NCBI RefSeq assembly: GCF_900090235.1 | Contig: NZ_LT607750.1 | Coordinates: forward strand, 5,385,001-5,449,000 | From: Micromonospora echinaurantiaca | GTDB lineage: Bacteria; Actinomycetota; Actinomycetes; Mycobacteriales; Micromonosporaceae | Direction: 5' to 3' | Length of the DNA stretch: 64,000 nt | Part shown: positions 3,730 to 64,000 of the stretch, piece after piece | Layout: every line of letters starts with the position of its first letter | Position numbering within the stretch: the first letter of the stretch is position 1 | Program-made: the position numbers and the translations under genes | The notes under the pieces: model-generated | Databases searched by the model: none | What the model was told of the DNA's origin: nothing | The model's input: only the letters and a program-made list of their open reading frames with translations

Positions 3730-5150
3730 CAGGAATCGAACCCCAAACCGAAACGATCGAGCGTACGGAGCCAGAGGTTGCGCCGGCCCTGACGCACGTC
3801 GGCCTGGGCCAGCGACCAGCGGGTGAGATTGATGCCGACCGCCCGGGCCGGCTCGGGCGGGAACGGCAGTGGCATCCGGCGCACCAGGTCGAGCCGGGTC
3901 AACGGGGTCTCCTCCCCGTCGAGCAGGTCGAGCATCACCCGGGCGGCGAACCGGGTCGCCCCGACGCCGAGCCCGGTGAACCCGGCCGCGTACGCCAACC
4001 GCCCCTCGTACGCGGTGCCGAAGAACGGGCAGAACCGGGTACAGGTGTCGATCACCCCGCCCCAGCGGTGGCTGAATCGCAGCCCGTCGAGCTGCGGGAA
4101 GGTGGTGAAGAAGTGCTCGGCGAGGGTGCAGAAGGTGTCCCAGCGCTGCTCCAGCGACGGGGCCATCCGGCTGCCGAAGTGGTAGACGGCGTCGTACCCG
4201 CCGAACAGGATCCGGTTGTCGGGGGTGATCCGGTAGTAGTGGAACTGGTTGCCGGTGTCCGCGAGCCCCTGCCGGTTCGCCCAGCCGATCGCGCGCCGCT
4301 CGTCGTCCGCGAGCGGCTCGGTCATCAGCGCGTAGTCGTAGACCGGCACCACCCAGGCGCGCAGCCGGCGCAGCAACGGCGGGAACGCGTTGGTCGCCAG
4401 CACCACCCGCCCGGCGCGGACGCTGCCCGGAGCGGCGTCCCGGCCGGCGGCGGTGGCGGCCCGCAGCGCCGCGCCGTCGCGGCGCAGCCCGGTCACCCGG
4501 GTGTGCTCGGCGATCCGCACCCCGACGCTGAGACAGGCCCGGCGCAGCCCCCAGGCCAGCTTCGCCGGGTCGAGCAGGGCCGTGCGGTCCCGGTCCCACA
4601 TCCCGCCGAGGTACGTCGGCGAGTTCACCTCGGCGCGTACCTCGTCGGCGTCGAGCAGCCGCACGTCGTGGCCGTACCGGCGGCCCAGCTCCGCGTCGGC
4701 GGCGAGCCCGTCGAGCTGGTACGGCTCGACCGCGACGGCCAGTTCGCCGGTGCGCTCGAAGTCGCAGTCGATGCCGTACTCGGCCACGGTCGCGGCGATG
4801 GCGTCCAGGTTCTCCCGGCCGAGCCGCTCCAGCAGCTCGATCTCGTCCGGGAAGCGCTCGACGCCGTTGGTCAGCCCGTGGGTGAGCGAGGCGGCGCAGA
4901 ACCCGCCGTTGCGCCCGGACGCCGCCCAGCCGCAGGTGCCCGCCTCGACCAGCAGCACGTCCCGGCTCGGGTCGGCCCGCTTGGCCAGCAGCGCGGTCCA
5001 CAGCCCGGCGTACCCGCCGCCCACGACCAGCAGGTCGGCGGTGTCAGGGCCGGTCAGCGGCGGCAGCGGGTCGGGGCGTTCCGGGCGGTCCAGCCAGTAC
5101 GGCACGGGCACCGCGTCGGCCAGCGCCCGGCCGGGATGCGGCCCGGTCAT
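3729..5150 (-). CDS. FAD-dependent amine oxidase (DAO/PuuB-like), first copy
   Basis: This 473-residue DAO-superfamily flavoprotein has a dinucleotide-binding GGGYAG at 44-49 and the SGRNGG motif at 78-83 characteristic of PuuB/OrdL-type oxidases. The C-terminal half carries YYRITPDNRILFGGYD and a final FAD-contacting glycine segment (GFTGLGVGATRFAARVM). PuuB relatives oxidise gamma-glutamylputrescine or related primary amines to aldehydes plus ammonia and peroxide. No gamma-glutamylpolyamine synthetase gene is nearby, so the substrate may be a free amine. It is coupled by overlaps to potC upstream and the saccharopine-dehydrogenase-like gene downstream. A divergent paralogue lies at 14008-15384. 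Confidence 0.88.
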   Translation of the reverse strand: MTGPHPGRALADAVPVPYWLDRPERPDPLPPLTGPDTADLLVVGGGYAGLWTALLAKRADPSRDVLLVEAGTCGWAASGRNGGFCAASLTHGLTNGVERFPDEIELLERLGRENLDAIAATVAEYGIDCDFERTGELAVAVEPYQLDGLAADAELGRRYGHDVRLLDADEVRAEVNSPTYLGGMWDRDRTALLDPAKLAWGLRRACLSVGVRIAEHTRVTGLRRDGAALRAATAAGRDAAPGSVRAGRVVLATNAFPPLLRRLRAWVVPVYDYALMTEPLADDERRAIGWANRQGLADTGNQFHYYRITPDNRILFGGYDAVYHFGSRMAPSLEQRWDTFCTLAEHFFTTFPQLDGLRFSHRWGGVIDTCTRFCPFFGTAYEGRLAYAAGFTGLGVGATRFAARVMLDLLDGEETPLTRLDLVRRMPLPFPPEPARAVGINLTRWSLAQADVRQGRRNLWLRTLDRFGLGFDS

Positions 5151-5998
5151 GACGGGCGCCGCGCCGGCCCGCCGCCCGCCGCGACCCGCAGCGCGGCGCG
5201 GCGGCCCCGCCGGCCGCGCAGCATGCTGGCCAGCACCAGCAGCAGCGCGATCACGAACATCGCCGTGCCGATGACGTTGACCTGCGGCGGGATGCCCCGC
5301 TGGGCGGCGCCCCAGACGTACATCGGGAACGTGACGGTGGTGCCGGCGTTGAAGTTGGTGATGATGAAGTCGTCGAACGACAGCGAGAAGGCGAGCAGCG
5401 CGGCGGCCACGATGCCGGGCATCACCAGCGGCAGGGTGATCCGCCGGAAGGTCTGCCACTCGCTGGCGTAGAGGTCCATCGCGGCTTCCTCCAGCCGGGA
5501 GTCCATCCCGGCCAGCCGCGCCTTCACCGTGACCACCACGAACGACACGCAGAACATCACGTGCGCGATGACGATGGTCCAGAACCCCTGCGGCACCCCG
5601 GCGGAGACGAAGAGGGCGAGCAGCGAGGTGCCCATCACCAGCTCCGGCGTGGCCATCGGCAGGAAGATCAGCACGTTGATCCCGGACCGGCCGCGGAACC
5701 GGTGCCGCACCAGCGCGAACGCCATCAGGGTGCCGAGCACCGTGGCGACCACGGTGGCGATGAACCCGATCTGGACGCTGCGCACCACCGCGTCGCACAT
5801 GTCCGAGGTGGCGCACGGGTTACGCCAGTTGTCCAGGGTGAACTCGTGGAAGTCGTACGACAGCCGGCTGGACGGGCGGTTGAAGGACAGGCCGGCGACC
5901 ACGGCGATGGGCAGGAAGAGGTAGCCGAGCACCAGCAGCCCGACGCCCAGCACCCAGTGGTCGGCCAGCCAGCGACCGATGCGGTGGGCCACGGTCAC
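5147..5998 (-). CDS. potC: Polyamine ABC transporter permease, PotC-like
   Basis: A 283-residue inner-membrane permease with about six hydrophobic helices and the EAA-loop region (LEEAAMDLYASEWQTFRRI) that contacts the ATPase. With PotB it forms the transmembrane channel of a spermidine/putrescine-type importer. I chose the GTG at 5996-5998. The reading frame stays open upstream to a GTG at 6058, but that adds only 20 residues encoded by the tandem repeat at 6000-6117. A segment with two close cysteines (NPCATSDMC, near residue 62) is an unusual insertion in the first external loop. Its stop overlaps the FAD oxidase start (ATGA). Confidence 0.9.
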   Translation of the reverse strand: MTVAHRIGRWLADHWVLGVGLLVLGYLFLPIAVVAGLSFNRPSSRLSYDFHEFTLDNWRNPCATSDMCDAVVRSVQIGFIATVVATVLGTLMAFALVRHRFRGRSGINVLIFLPMATPELVMGTSLLALFVSAGVPQGFWTIVIAHVMFCVSFVVVTVKARLAGMDSRLEEAAMDLYASEWQTFRRITLPLVMPGIVAAALLAFSLSFDDFIITNFNAGTTVTFPMYVWGAAQRGIPPQVNVIGTAMFVIALLLVLASMLRGRRGRRAALRVAAGGGPARRPS

Positions 5999-59810: not shown

Positions 59811-60473
<663 letters not shown>

Positions 60474-60519: not shown

Positions 60520-60744
60520 TCCCCGTCCGGTCGCTCTGTGCCGGCAGGTCGGAGAGGTTGCCCCGGACTGGGCCGAGACCTTCCCGAAAGCGGCTTTCCT
60601 CGTATATAACGTGAAAGCGCTACACATATAACCACTACCCCCAATCGCGTCATAAACCTGGAAAACGTTCCGATTTGGCATGAACACTCCTAACGTTCCT
60701 CGTGGCTCGTCCTCCTGAGCCGACCACTGAAGGGAGTGAGGATC

Positions 60745-61422
60745 ATGTCGATGAGGTTTCTGACCAAGCTCGCCGGCGGGGTGGCGCTGGGGAGCGCTGC
60801 CCTGCTGCTCGGTGCGCCCGCGACCGCGTTCGCCGCGACCGACGACGGAGCGACCAAGGAGCCCAGGAGTTCCCACGAGGAGAAGTCGAAGAAGAAGTCG
60901 GACGGCGGGCACGATACGTACAACCTGCGCGACAAGGAGGGCAAGGAGCTCGTCTGCGCGGCCAACAAGCAGACGAACGAGCTGAACGTCTCCAACATCA
61001 TCAAGGGCAACACCATCACGGACAGCGTGATCGTCATCACGCAGAATGTCGCGAGCTCGCAGACGAACGAGAGTGGACCACGCACCATCGTCTGCATCCG
61101 CGACCTCGAGTTGGACGCGAAGGTGGAGGCGGATCTGCTCGGCGACCTCTTCAAGATGGTCGAGCGGTCCGGTATCGGCCGGGTCGCCTCGCCGGCGGGC
61201 CAGCGTGCCGGCAAGGCCACCGAGCCAACCGTCGCGTACGCGGGTCCGGAAGGTGCCTGGGTGTTCCCGGCGACGGGCAGCGTCGCGGCCGGTGACGGTG
61301 GCGCGTTCACCGACGCCAACACCGGTGCTCTGGTGACCACCGGTGCCGGCATGATGGGCGTCGCCGCGCTCGTTGGCATCGCTCTGCTGCGTCGGCGGTC
61401 CGCCAATGGCACCGTCGCCTAG
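60745..61422 (+). CDS. Secreted/wall-linked protein, paralogue of the 62410-62721 product
   Basis: 225 residues. Signal sequence (FLTKLAGGVALGSAALLLG) to about 30, then a Lys/Ser-rich spacer, a domain bounded by C71 and C117 containing KQTNELNVSN, NTITDSVIVITQNV and VCIRDLELD, then a Gly/Ala/Val-rich tail with FPATG at 174-178, DANTG at 190-194, one hydrophobic helix (195-215) and RRR. The tail looks like a C-terminal sorting signal for the sortase encoded next. AAGGGAG precedes the ATG at 60745. Family not recognised; described in the findings. The 271 bases upstream contain the msrA terminator and an AT-rich promoter-like stretch near 60600-60680. Confidence 0.8.
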   Translation: MSMRFLTKLAGGVALGSAALLLGAPATAFAATDDGATKEPRSSHEEKSKKKSDGGHDTYNLRDKEGKELVCAANKQTNELNVSNIIKGNTITDSVIVITQNVASSQTNESGPRTIVCIRDLELDAKVEADLLGDLFKMVERSGIGRVASPAGQRAGKATEPTVAYAGPEGAWVFPATGSVAAGDGGAFTDANTGALVTTGAGMMGVAALVGIALLRRRSANGTVA

Positions 61423-62209
61423 GTCGACCCCGAGCGTCAGCGGCCGCCACGGTTTCCCGTGGCGTGCCGCTGGCCTCGTTCTGGTGGTTCTTTTCACGCT
61501 CACCGGGGCAGGACTGATCGGGCTCGGGGTCACGGCTGCTGATCCGGTCCGGCCGCCACAGCCCGATCCCGCCGCCGCACCGGCGTTCCTCCTCCCACCG
61601 GTGGCGGAGGACGCCGCCGCACCGGCCCCGACCCCGAGCGCATCGCCGGCCGCCGGTCAGGCGCGCGGTGCTCGCGGCCGCGACGCCGGTCGTCAGTCCG
61701 GCGCGGCCCAGCCGTCGCCCTCACCGACGGCGGCCGGGATGCCGCGGTCGCAACCCACCCGCATCAAGATCCCGCGAATCGGCGTCGACGCACCGACGGC
61801 TCCGCTCGGGCTGGACCGGAACCAGCAGATCGCGGTCCCGCCGCCCCAGCAATCCAATACGGCCGGGTGGTACAAGCTGGGACCGAGCCCCGGTGAGGCC
61901 GGGACCGCGGTGGTGGTGGGCCACGTCGACTCCCGCGCGACCGGGAGGGCTGTCTTCTTCCGGCTGGGTGCGCTCAAGCGGGGAGACAGCATCGAGGTGC
62001 TCCGCAAGGACGGCAGGACAGCCCGATTCACCGTCGACGGAGTAGCCCGCTACCCGAAGAACAAGTTCCCGTCCGCGCTGGTCTACGGCCACACCGGCAA
62101 GGCGCAGCTCCGGTTGATCACCTGTGGTGGTGGCTACGACAAGGCGGCGAGGTCGTACAAGGACAACGTCGTGGTGTTCGCGAGCCTGGCTGCGGGGCGT
62201 GTCGCGTGA
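61406..62209 (+). CDS. Class F sortase
   Basis: 267 residues. An N-terminal membrane anchor (AAGLVLVVLFTLTGAGLIGL, about 18-37) is followed by a Pro/Ala-rich linker and the sortase domain: catalytic H173 in VVVGHVDSRATG and nucleophile C240 in LITCGGGYD. The Arg normally near 13 residues after the Cys is not obvious (ARSYKDNVVVFA). Sortases cleave a sorting motif and attach the protein to the wall or to another protein. It overlaps the preceding secreted-protein gene by 17 bases, so they are co-expressed. Confidence 0.9.
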   Translation: MAPSPRSTPSVSGRHGFPWRAAGLVLVVLFTLTGAGLIGLGVTAADPVRPPQPDPAAAPAFLLPPVAEDAAAPAPTPSASPAAGQARGARGRDAGRQSGAAQPSPSPTAAGMPRSQPTRIKIPRIGVDAPTAPLGLDRNQQIAVPPPQQSNTAGWYKLGPSPGEAGTAVVVGHVDSRATGRAVFFRLGALKRGDSIEVLRKDGRTARFTVDGVARYPKNKFPSALVYGHTGKAQLRLITCGGGYDKAARSYKDNVVVFASLAAGRVA

Positions 62210-62314
62210 GGCGGTGAATGGCGGGCGGCTTCACGTGCGGGCGGCGACGGCCAGCTCCGAAGCCGGGAAACCGAGGTGCGTGGTCCCGGCACCGCTGCAC
62301 CCGAGAAGGACGAG

Positions 62315-62353
62315 GCCAGCGGCCGCCACGGGGAGACCGTGACGGCCGCTGGC
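62315..62353. terminator. Bidirectional hairpin between sortase and convergent secreted-protein gene
   Basis: GCCAGCGGCCG (62315-62325) pairs with 62343-62353, with CACGG/CCGTG extending the stem inside. It lies 106 bases after the sortase stop and 57 bases past the stop of the convergent gene, and is the only strong structure in this 200-base gap. Confidence 0.7.
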
Positions 62354-62409
62354 ACTCCTGGTCGCCTCAGGCGGCCCAGCCCACCGGCCAGCCGACGCTG
62401 TCGAGCAGA

Positions 62410-62721
62410 TCAGTCCAGCTCCAGGTCCAGTTCCACGTCGTTGATGCAGACATTGACGATGTTGTTGTTTGGACCAAATTCCGTGCTGTTCTCCTGGTTG
62501 ACGGACTGCTCAACGACGATGGCAATCTCGCTGTCCTCGATGAAGTTCCTCTCGAAGACGCTGACGGCGGCCGCTTCGTTGGACTGCTCGATGGTGCCGC
62601 AGGTGTTGCTGTCCGACGCCTCGCCGTCGTAGGCCATCGCGGCTGTGGGCGTGCCGAGCAGCAGGGCGGCACCGCCCAGGGCGACCGCGCCGGCGAGCTT
62701 GGCCAGGTACCTCTTCGACAT
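62410..62721 (-). CDS. Small secreted protein, paralogue of the 60745-61422 product
   Basis: 103 residues. Signal peptide (YLAKLAGAVALGGAALLLG) to about 30, then a ~70-residue mature domain bounded by C41 and C92 containing QSNEAAAVSVF, NFIEDSEIAIVVEQSVNQEN and VCINDVELD. It shares signal sequence, QxNE, Ixx-DSxIxIxxxQ-V-x2-Q-x-N, and the closing C-I-x-D-x-ELD with the product at 60745-61422, but has no C-terminal anchor. AGAGGAAAC precedes the ATG at 62719-62721. No known family recognised; described in the findings. Confidence 0.78.
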   Translation of the reverse strand: MSKRYLAKLAGAVALGGAALLLGTPTAAMAYDGEASDSNTCGTIEQSNEAAAVSVFERNFIEDSEIAIVVEQSVNQENSTEFGPNNNIVNVCINDVELDLELD

Positions 62722-63138
62722 GTTTCCTCTCCCTTCCGGTCGGCTCGGTAGATGAGCCACGACAAACGTAAGGAGGATTCATGTCCGGTCGCGCCGGTTT
62801 CCGGGTTTCTGCGGCAAACCGACCTACAGATGATAAGTGTAGTTTTTTCGGCTTTGGGGCGTCAGGCCCATCTGGTCAACTCGCGCGCCCTCTGAGCATC
62901 TTGAGCTCGGGCGAGGCAGTCTGGCTGGCACCGCCGAAGCGTCGCCCCGACTGGGGGGTTTATCACAGCAGCGGGCGGCTGAGATCCGCCCAGGGTGACG
63001 GCCTACGACACGAACGGCCACCGTCGCCCCGCCCACGACCACGGTACGTGAGCGGGGGTGCGGATTGTAGCAACTCTTCACACGATCGTCATCGTCTCAA
63101 CAGGCGAATCGCAACATCCTCTGGCAGCATGGCCTCGC
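62722..63138. other. Intergenic region with AT-rich tract, upstream of the amidotransferase gene
   Basis: 417 bases without a gene. An AT-rich tract at 62825-62850, with a run of six T at 62843-62848, lies about 105 bases upstream of the minus-strand secreted-protein gene and is the likely promoter region on that side. The amidotransferase promoter should lie between about 62940 and 63110; I saw no clear motif and no ribosome-binding site directly before its ATG. Confidence 0.4.
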
Positions 63139-64000
63139 ATGTGCGGACTTGCGGGTGAGTTCCGCCGTGACGGTCTACGCGCCGATGTGGCGGCGGTGGA
63201 GCGCATGGCGGCCACGATGAGTGACCGAGGGCCCGACGACAGCGGCGTGTGGTCCCAGGGGGCGACGGCCCTGGGACACCGACGGCTGAAGATCATCGAC
63301 CTTTCCGCGGCGAGCGGTCAGCCACTGGTCGACCCGGACGCCGGGTTGACCGGCGTCTTCAACGGCTGCGTCTACAACTACCGGGAACTGCGGGCGGAGC
63401 TGACCGCCCGGGGCCACCGCTTCTTCTCCACCGGCGACAGCGAGGTCGTGGTCAAGGCGTACGCCGAGTGGGGCCTCGACTTCGTCGACCACCTGGTCGG
63501 CATGTTCGCCGTGGCGATCACCGAGCGGGACACCGGCCGGCTGGTGCTGGCCCGGGACCGGCTCGGCATCAAGCCGCTCTACCTGGCCGAGACGCCGGGC
63601 GTGGTGCGGTTCGCCAGCACCCTGCCGGCGCTGCTGGCCGGCGGCGGGGTCGACACCAGCCTCGACCCGGTCGCCCTCGCCCACTACCTGAGCTTCCACA
63701 GCATCGTGCCACCGCCGCGCACCATCCTGCGCGGGGTGACCAAGCTGCCCCCGGCCACCGTGCGGGTCTACGAGCCGGACGGCCGCACCCACGAGCGGGT
63801 CTACTGGGATCCCTCGTTCACCCGGGACACCGGCCGGGCCGGCTGGTCCGCGCAGGACTGGCAGGACGCCCTGCTGGAGTCGCTGACCACCGCCGTACGC
63901 CGACGGATGGTCGCCGACGTGCCGGTGGGCGTGCTGCTCTCCGGCGGCCTGGACTCCAGCCTGGTGGTGGCCCTCCTCGCCGAGCAGGGGCAGCGCGGGC
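63139..64000 (+). CDS. N-acetylglutaminylglutamine amidotransferase, partial at window end
   Basis: 287 codons are visible before the window ends. The N-terminal nucleophile is C2 in MCGLAGEF, the glutaminase domain follows (SDRGPDDSGVWSQG, GHRRLKIIDLS, VFNGCVYNYRELRAELTARG, LARDRLGIKPLYL), and the synthetase PP-loop SGGLDSS occurs at the end. The pattern matches the asparagine-synthase-like enzyme that amidates the osmoprotectant dipeptide N-acetylglutaminylglutamine, rather than standard AsnB. It should be followed by the NAGGN synthetase gene outside the window. Confidence 0.88.
   Translation, partial: MCGLAGEFRRDGLRADVAAVERMAATMSDRGPDDSGVWSQGATALGHRRLKIIDLSAASGQPLVDPDAGLTGVFNGCVYNYRELRAELTARGHRFFSTGDSEVVVKAYAEWGLDFVDHLVGMFAVAITERDTGRLVLARDRLGIKPLYLAETPGVVRFASTLPALLAGGGVDTSLDPVALAHYLSFHSIVPPPRTILRGVTKLPPATVRVYEPDGRTHERVYWDPSFTRDTGRAGWSAQDWQDALLESLTTAVRRRMVADVPVGVLLSGGLDSSLVVALLAEQGQRG

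What the first reader, a model, noticed from the sequence alone, without database searches (positions are those of the whole stretch)
60745..62721. Small sortase-linked secreted system with two paralogous Cys-bounded proteins
Seen: the two products share 30-residue signals, an N/Q-rich domain between two cysteines (46 and 51 residues apart), and C-I-x-D-x-ELD. One has an anchor tail with FPATG, DANTG, a membrane helix and RRR; the other is free. A class F sortase gene lies between them and overlaps the anchored one by 17 bases. Inference: the free protein may polymerise on, or be attached to, the anchored one. The Q/N-patterned beta-like domain recalls chaplin/rodlin or curli-type surface proteins, but I recognise no family.
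Basis: partly seen in the sequence, partly recalled or inferred. Interest (0 to 1): 0.8.

Follow-up and report, generated by a model that had tools for sequence, protein, structure and literature searches.

The report
Anchored-plus-free surface protein pair, Micromonospora
A soil bacterium carries a surface protein with its own wall-anchoring enzyme, plus a free sister protein that appears to have begun as a copy of that same gene pair and lost its anchor, which points to an uncharacterised surface system seen so far only in Micromonospora.

Summary
Window 60745-61422 (A, anchored), 61406-62209 (class F sortase) and 62410-62721 minus (F, free) are real genes. A and F share a two-cysteine domain without a match above any curated family cut-off. 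It occurs in 17 of 160 Micromonospora genomes and in no other of 44 genera in a family sample. In 16 of 16 intact A loci a sortase start codon lies 17 bases inside A. A resembles the substrate of a widespread core class F locus in signal, tail and leader DNA, but displays a different domain. F looks like a decayed duplicate of the whole A-sortase unit: a relic of the sortase start lies behind it here, and the tail relic in one relative, while leader, signal and domain are intact. A second free form seems to have arisen inside the A clade. F is found only with A and is more acidic. A's domain shows dN/dS near 1 against 0.25-0.32 for the sortase's catalytic part. FPATG itself is not conserved among relatives. 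Chaplin membership is not supported. Most likely A and F act together at the surface; physical assembly is inferred, not shown.

The parts
60640..60744 (+). conserved leader / probable promoter region of A, shared with F and, more weakly, with the core SrtF substrate
   Evidence: alignment of 25 leaders; sequence model R2
60745..61422 (+). A: wall-anchored protein, 225 aa (signal 1-30, stalk 31-58, Cys domain 59-130, linker, anchor tail)
60919..61134 (+). orphan two-cysteine domain of A
   Evidence: alignment A1; no family above a curated cut-off, no PDB relative
61264..61293 (+). sorting-signal region FPATGSVAAG: LPxTA or LPANG at FPATG in most relatives; invariant P and VAAG
61312..61398 (+). 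DANTG, hydrophobic stretch and RRR of the anchor
61406..62209 (+). class F sortase, 267 aa from ATG 61406; His in GHVD, Cys in TCGG, Asn in KDN
62307..62373 (-). relic of a second sortase start behind F (matches 61416-61482, 82% over 68 aligned positions, 62.6 bits)
   Evidence: 1000 shuffles reach at most 34.6 bits
62410..62721 (-). F: free secreted paralogue, 103 aa, strongly acidic, ends just after the Cys domain
62722..62826 (-). conserved leader of F
59811..60473 (+). flank: msrA (TIGR00401)
63187..64000 (+). flank: N-acetylglutaminylglutamine amidotransferase (TIGR03104), runs out of the window

Best explanation
[quoted passage not shown] The unit probably came from a duplicate of a widespread core substrate-sortase pair whose displayed part was replaced by a new two-cysteine domain on a charged stalk. 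F came from a second duplication, of the whole A-sortase unit; its anchor and sortase decayed while leader, signal and domain were kept. F is therefore made together with A and released outside, where the acidic free domain associates with the anchored domain and builds or modulates a surface layer. Shown by sequence: gene structure, A/F homology, sortase pairing, shared leader, duplication relics, co-occurrence. Inferred: secretion, wall anchoring, disulfide, co-expression, descent from the core pair. Least certain: physical A-F association.
For: Start codon 17 bases inside A in 16 of 16 loci; VGH[VL]D, TCGG and the following Asn in 16 of 16 sortases; the 15 module sortases put in the tree form one group, 87/92. 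Leader alignable in all 25 A/F/M genes, including two F genes unlinked to A; in six genomes a leader model finds at E up to 0.03 the A and F genes, five sites upstream of core proteins and one site not checked. Relics behind F: tail in G125 (71 bits; 450 shuffles up to 31.6), sortase start in the window (62.6 bits at DNA level). F in 7 genomes, all among the 16 with intact A of 160 (hypergeometric 2.5e-8, kinship not corrected). About 6.9 nonsense changes expected in F without constraint (rough estimate), none seen. Second free form (M) nested in an A subclade, 100/99. Domain charge -10 to -15 in 7 F, -2 to -6 in 16 A.
Against: 7 of the 16 genomes with intact A have neither F nor M, so A can work alone. 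No structure: the one AlphaFold model is poor (pLDDT 55.6, pTM 0.34). dN/dS near 1 in the domain also fits weak constraint. At protein level only G125, G070 and G088 show a sortase relic above the shuffles; the window (40.4 bits) and G126 (41.6) lie within the shuffle range (up to 42.4), G089 and G069 show none, and a tail relic is seen in G125 alone of 7. In the sortase tree the join of module and core sortases is weakly supported (52/40). The sorting motif is ambiguous.
Confidence: 0.45

Rival explanations
1. A and F do not assemble: A shows a fast-changing recognition domain on the wall and F is a released decoy or competitor against a phage, a toxin or a neighbour.
For: Domain dN/dS 0.85-1.26 against 0.25-0.32 for the sortase catalytic part and 0.25-0.29 for a neighbouring pullulanase-type gene; present in 17 of 160 genomes; 16 A loci in 11 contexts.
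Against: Linker (0.65-1.19), stalk (0.78-0.93) and sortase N-terminus (0.67-0.77) are also fast, so weak constraint suffices; viral contigs gave no relative.
Confidence: 0.2
2. F is a dying duplicate without function; only A with its sortase matters.
For: Relics of tail and sortase behind F; absent from 9 of the 16 genomes with intact A (2 of these 9 carry M); dN/dS of the F domain 0.19-1.10 in 6 pairs.
Against: Open frame, signal, leader, both Cys and the invariant Q and N kept in 7 of 7; about 6.9 nonsense changes expected, none seen; uniform acidic shift; an apparently independent free form M.
Confidence: 0.2
3. A chaplin- or curli-type amyloid coat in a genus without detected chaplins: A nucleates, F polymerises.
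For: Same long-anchored/short-free layout; moderate N/Q enrichment; PF03777 in 0 of 25 Micromonospora genomes searched.
Against: Mean GRAVY of the domain -0.18 (16 A) and -0.44 (7 F), though +0.08 in 2 M; mean charge -4 and -13; no chaplin or curlin match in Pfam; class F, not class E, sortase.
Confidence: 0.1

Closest known systems
Core class F sortase locus of Micromonospora (own genome 474571-476320; L110, L117-L125)
   Same: similar signal peptide, anchor tail and leader, and a class F sortase in the same order (53-58% identical to the module's catalytic part); likely parent of the A-sortase unit
   Different: displays a different part with a long charged repeat; hhalign of the two mature parts finds nothing
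Streptomyces chaplins (long ChpA-C, short ChpD-H)
   Same: sortase-anchored and free small secreted forms sharing a two-cysteine domain (PMC13251363, PMC13293333, passages)
   Different: no PF03777 match, domain hydrophilic on average and acidic, class F instead of class E sortase
Actinoplanes missouriensis SrtE substrates CwpA, CwpB, SspA (PMC13251363, PMC13293333)
   Same: sortase-anchored surface proteins of the same bacterial family
   Different: class E sortase; hydrophobic or disordered proteins; deletion of all four class F sortases left sporangia normal, so class F roles are open
GVDTG_CTERM sorting domain (NF058571)
   Same: A's tail gives a weak match (17.2 bits, E 0.054); by coordinates, gaps not seen, A's VAAG falls at the GVDTG place
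   Different: below the curated cut-off of 29 bits, and two proteins not examined score higher than A; the DUF4397 protein beside another class F sortase of this genome passes (45.8 bits)

Membership tests
class F sortase | NF033748 above curated cut-off | tested here: met
   213.8 bits, cut-off 166
class F sortase | catalytic His and Cys, with Asn in place of Arg in actinobacteria (PMC6998099, passages) | tested here: met
   VGH[VL]D, TCGG and a following Asn in 16 of 16 module sortases; that this Asn is the catalytic position is inferred
class F sortase | transpeptidase activity on the adjacent substrate | not testable with these tools
   needs mutant or enzyme assay
chaplin | PF03777 domain | tested here: not met
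   no match for A or F at E up to 10
chaplin | hydrophobic domain with three GN motifs | tested here: not met
   mean GRAVY negative in A and F; one GN in the window's A domain and none in F by eye
chaplin | anchored and free forms of one domain | tested here: met
   16 A, 7 F, 2 M; a layout, not kinship
curlin / rodlin | sequence match to a family model | tested here: inconclusive
   no such Pfam match; whether Pfam holds a rodlin model was not checked
GVDTG sorting domain | NF058571 above cut-off of 29 bits | tested here: not met
   A 17.2 bits; 2 of 16 A proteins match at E up to 10, best 0.022; at that loose threshold the model also rings in 10 of 14 control genomes
sortase substrate | motif, hydrophobic stretch and basic tail at the C-terminus | tested here: met
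   by sequence in 16 of 16, motif variable; no topology predictor was run

The most novel reading that the evidence does not exclude
A new kind of sortase-built surface system: an orphan, fast-diversifying two-cysteine domain deployed as a wall-anchored form on a charged stalk and as an acidic free form, which pair or co-polymerise outside the cell and give each strain its own surface identity in a genus in which no chaplins were found in the genomes searched; free forms have been derived from the anchored one twice.
Probability: 0.2. Interest if true: 0.75.

Novelty: new variant of a known kind. Interest (0 to 1): 0.52.

Why it matters
The role of class F sortases is described as unknown in print (PMC13251363, PMC6998099, passages). 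This locus offers a clean one-enzyme, one-substrate case. In this genome all six class F sortases have a tailed secreted protein as the next called gene upstream on the same strand, and three of the six tails lack an xPxTG pentapeptide by eye, so motif searches of the usual kind could miss such substrates. The locus also suggests how an anchored surface protein can give rise to a free partner by duplication and loss of the anchor.

Tried and rejected
FPATG as a conserved pentapeptide: rejected within the A family. Against dropping it altogether: two other class F substrates of this genome carry GPATG, so an xPATG site may be real here. A leader RNA hairpin: RNAalifold gives -2.2 kcal/mol with one compensatory pair, so no claim. 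Chaplin membership: rejected. Kinship of the domain with the mature core protein: none by hhalign. PDB sequence match: weak hits only, best E 0.35. Weak family hits judged not meaningful: F to TraV (NF010293, E 0.0014, 19 bits, cut-off 150), A to MTHFR_C (E 0.041), single members of the domain alignment (best E 0.01), single full-length A proteins, the best being one of 16 to SclB (NF038329, E 1.5e-7, cut-off not shown). Viral origin: 26 pattern matches, none confirmed. The class-wide hit in G585 (17.7 bits, one stop inside) is treated as chance. Structure: one poor model; no fold search was made because a model of that quality would give meaningless matches. Positive selection: not tested formally; Nei-Gojobori counts only, codon bias not corrected.

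Limits on counts: the sortase tree used 15 of 16 module sortases, G113 left out. One search lists 147 of 151 genomes, but most of these match only the tail; the domain count rests. The core locus was opened in 10 genomes (own plus nine taken from the best tail matches), and in one of these (L122) only a fragment of the substrate was called. G149 holds a broken A with no sortase called beside it and is left out of the 16. The leader search scored 150 of 1840-2497 candidates per genome. The empty-site count covers 29 fetched loci of the 79 other genomes that matched. Contexts were judged by shared genes over 60% identical within about 5 kb. The N+Q background wrongly contained A and F; one search leaves them out. 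Gene calls come from a simple caller of my own. Literature searches (listings) showed nothing on this pair.

Full report
What is there. A (60745-61422, +) is a 225-residue protein with a signal-like start, a charged stalk, a domain bounded by two cysteines and a C-terminal anchor; the class F sortase (61406-62209, +) overlaps it by 17 bases; F (62410-62721, -) is a 103-residue protein with a signal-like start that ends just after the same domain. The genome is a single 7.2-Mb contig; the four relatives named are all Micromonospora.

Distribution. The domain profile matches 17 of 160 Micromonospora genomes, only this genus among 44 in a 300-genome sample of the family, and in 394 genomes of the class only the own genome plus one weak match taken as chance. 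I aligned 16 intact A, 7 F and 2 M proteins. No family fits the domain above a curated cut-off and no PDB relative was found; the weak hits are listed under Tried and rejected. N+Q enrichment is modest.

Sortase pairing. In 16 of 16 intact A loci a sortase start codon lies 17 bases inside A (ATG in 14, GTG in 2); 12 of the 16 have a further GTG or TTG upstream in the frame. The 15 module sortases put in the tree form one group (87/92); their join to the core sortases is weakly supported (52/40). The own genome has seven sortases: six pass the class F cut-off and one the class E cut-off. Each of the six class F genes has, as the next called gene upstream on its strand, a secreted protein with a hydrophobic tail followed by arginines (tails judged by eye; called gaps up to about 400 bp where the sortase start may be called too late).

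Origin of A. A's signal and tail resemble those of a core protein (own genome 475250-476320) with a class F sortase directly behind it. Leader DNA is shared too: a sequence-only model of 25 leaders, searched in six genomes, finds at E up to 0.03 four A leaders, three F leaders and six other sites, of which five lie upstream of core-protein matches in the same genome and one (G126 C2) was not checked (compared). The mature parts show no relation by hhalign. So A looks like a copy of the core pair with a new displayed part; this descent is inferred. The unit sits at different places: 16 loci in 11 contexts. Here it lies between msrA and an N-acetylglutaminylglutamine amidotransferase gene; of 29 other msrA loci examined, 17 have those neighbours within 373 bp, 4 within 0.8-1.2 kb, 8 show no such neighbour in the stretch held, and none shows A, F or the sortase.

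Origin of F. Behind the window's F lies a 68-position match to the start of the sortase (82%, 62.6 bits; 1000 shuffles at most 34.6). In G125 the anchor tail (71 bits; 450 shuffles at most 31.6) and part of a sortase with stops follow F (58.9 bits); G070 and G088 keep a sortase start above the shuffles (49.7 and 46.6 bits; shuffles at most 42.4); G126 (41.6) and, at protein level, the window (40.4) do not pass them; G089 and G069 show none. F is therefore best read as a duplicate of the whole unit that lost anchor and enzyme. F proteins are one group (98/95), while the M proteins, which stop at the sorting motif, lie inside an A subclade (100/99), so free forms seem to have arisen twice; the window's F is a long branch. 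F has kept its frame: about 6.9 nonsense changes would be expected from a rough branch-length sum, none is seen.

Divergence. Domain charge is -10 to -15 in 7 F, -8 in 2 M and -2 to -6 in 16 A; the stalk is 3-11 residues in F and 29-90 in A. Pooled dN/dS of A's domain is 0.85 (9 close pairs), 0.91 (7 independent pairs) and 1.26 (120 pairs), against 0.25, 0.26 and 0.32 for the sortase catalytic part and 0.25-0.29 for a pullulanase-type neighbour in three pairs. Linker (0.65, 1.06, 1.19), stalk (0.82, 0.78, 0.93), sortase N-terminus (0.67, 0.69, 0.77) and anchor (0.43, 0.75, 0.72) are also faster than the catalytic part, so weak constraint may explain this as well as diversification.

Sorting motif. 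At the FPATG place relatives have LPxTA in 10 of 16, LPANG in 3, LPSAA in 1, APANG in 1 and FPATG only here; P175 and VAAG 180-183 are invariant. Two other class F substrates of this genome carry GPATG by eye, which speaks for the FPATG place. The NCBIfam model GVDTG_CTERM matches A weakly (17.2 bits, E 0.054, cut-off 29), the core protein better (25.4; 20.6) and passes on the DUF4397 protein beside another class F sortase of this genome (45.8); at the loose threshold used it also rings in 10 of 14 control genomes. Two overlapping motifs are possible and only an experiment can choose.

Literature. PMC13251363 (abstract, outline, 12 passages, section 6 seen) and PMC6998099 (passages) call class F function unknown; deletion of all four class F sortases in Actinoplanes missouriensis left sporangia normal. 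PMC13293333 and PMC4255298 were seen as passages, PMC5765111 as one reference-list passage. Searches (listings) showed no paper on this pair.

Verdict. Joint action of A and F is likely; physical assembly remains a hypothesis.

Noticed in passing
own genome G000:C1 474571-476410 (L110): Core class F sortase pair: a substrate with long charged repeats, followed by its sortase; the substrate's tail matches A's tail, and tail matches occur in most of the 151 Micromonospora genomes searched.
   Followed up: partly
L111, L112, L113, L114: Four further class F sortases of the same genome, each behind one tailed secreted protein (one with two DUF4397 stretches and a passing GVDTG tail; two with GPATG).
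   Followed up: partly
L083:5001-5537, L084:4998-5537: M forms: A-like proteins that stop at the sorting motif, in two genomes at a shared place unlinked to A.
   Followed up: yes
L082 around 5001-5657: A copy of A broken by two stops, with no sortase called beside it (G149); counted apart, not read through.
   Followed up: no
window 60640-60744 and 62722-62826: Leader contains an invariant GCTC block and a conserved TAACGTT-like block nearer its middle; regulator unknown.
   Followed up: partly
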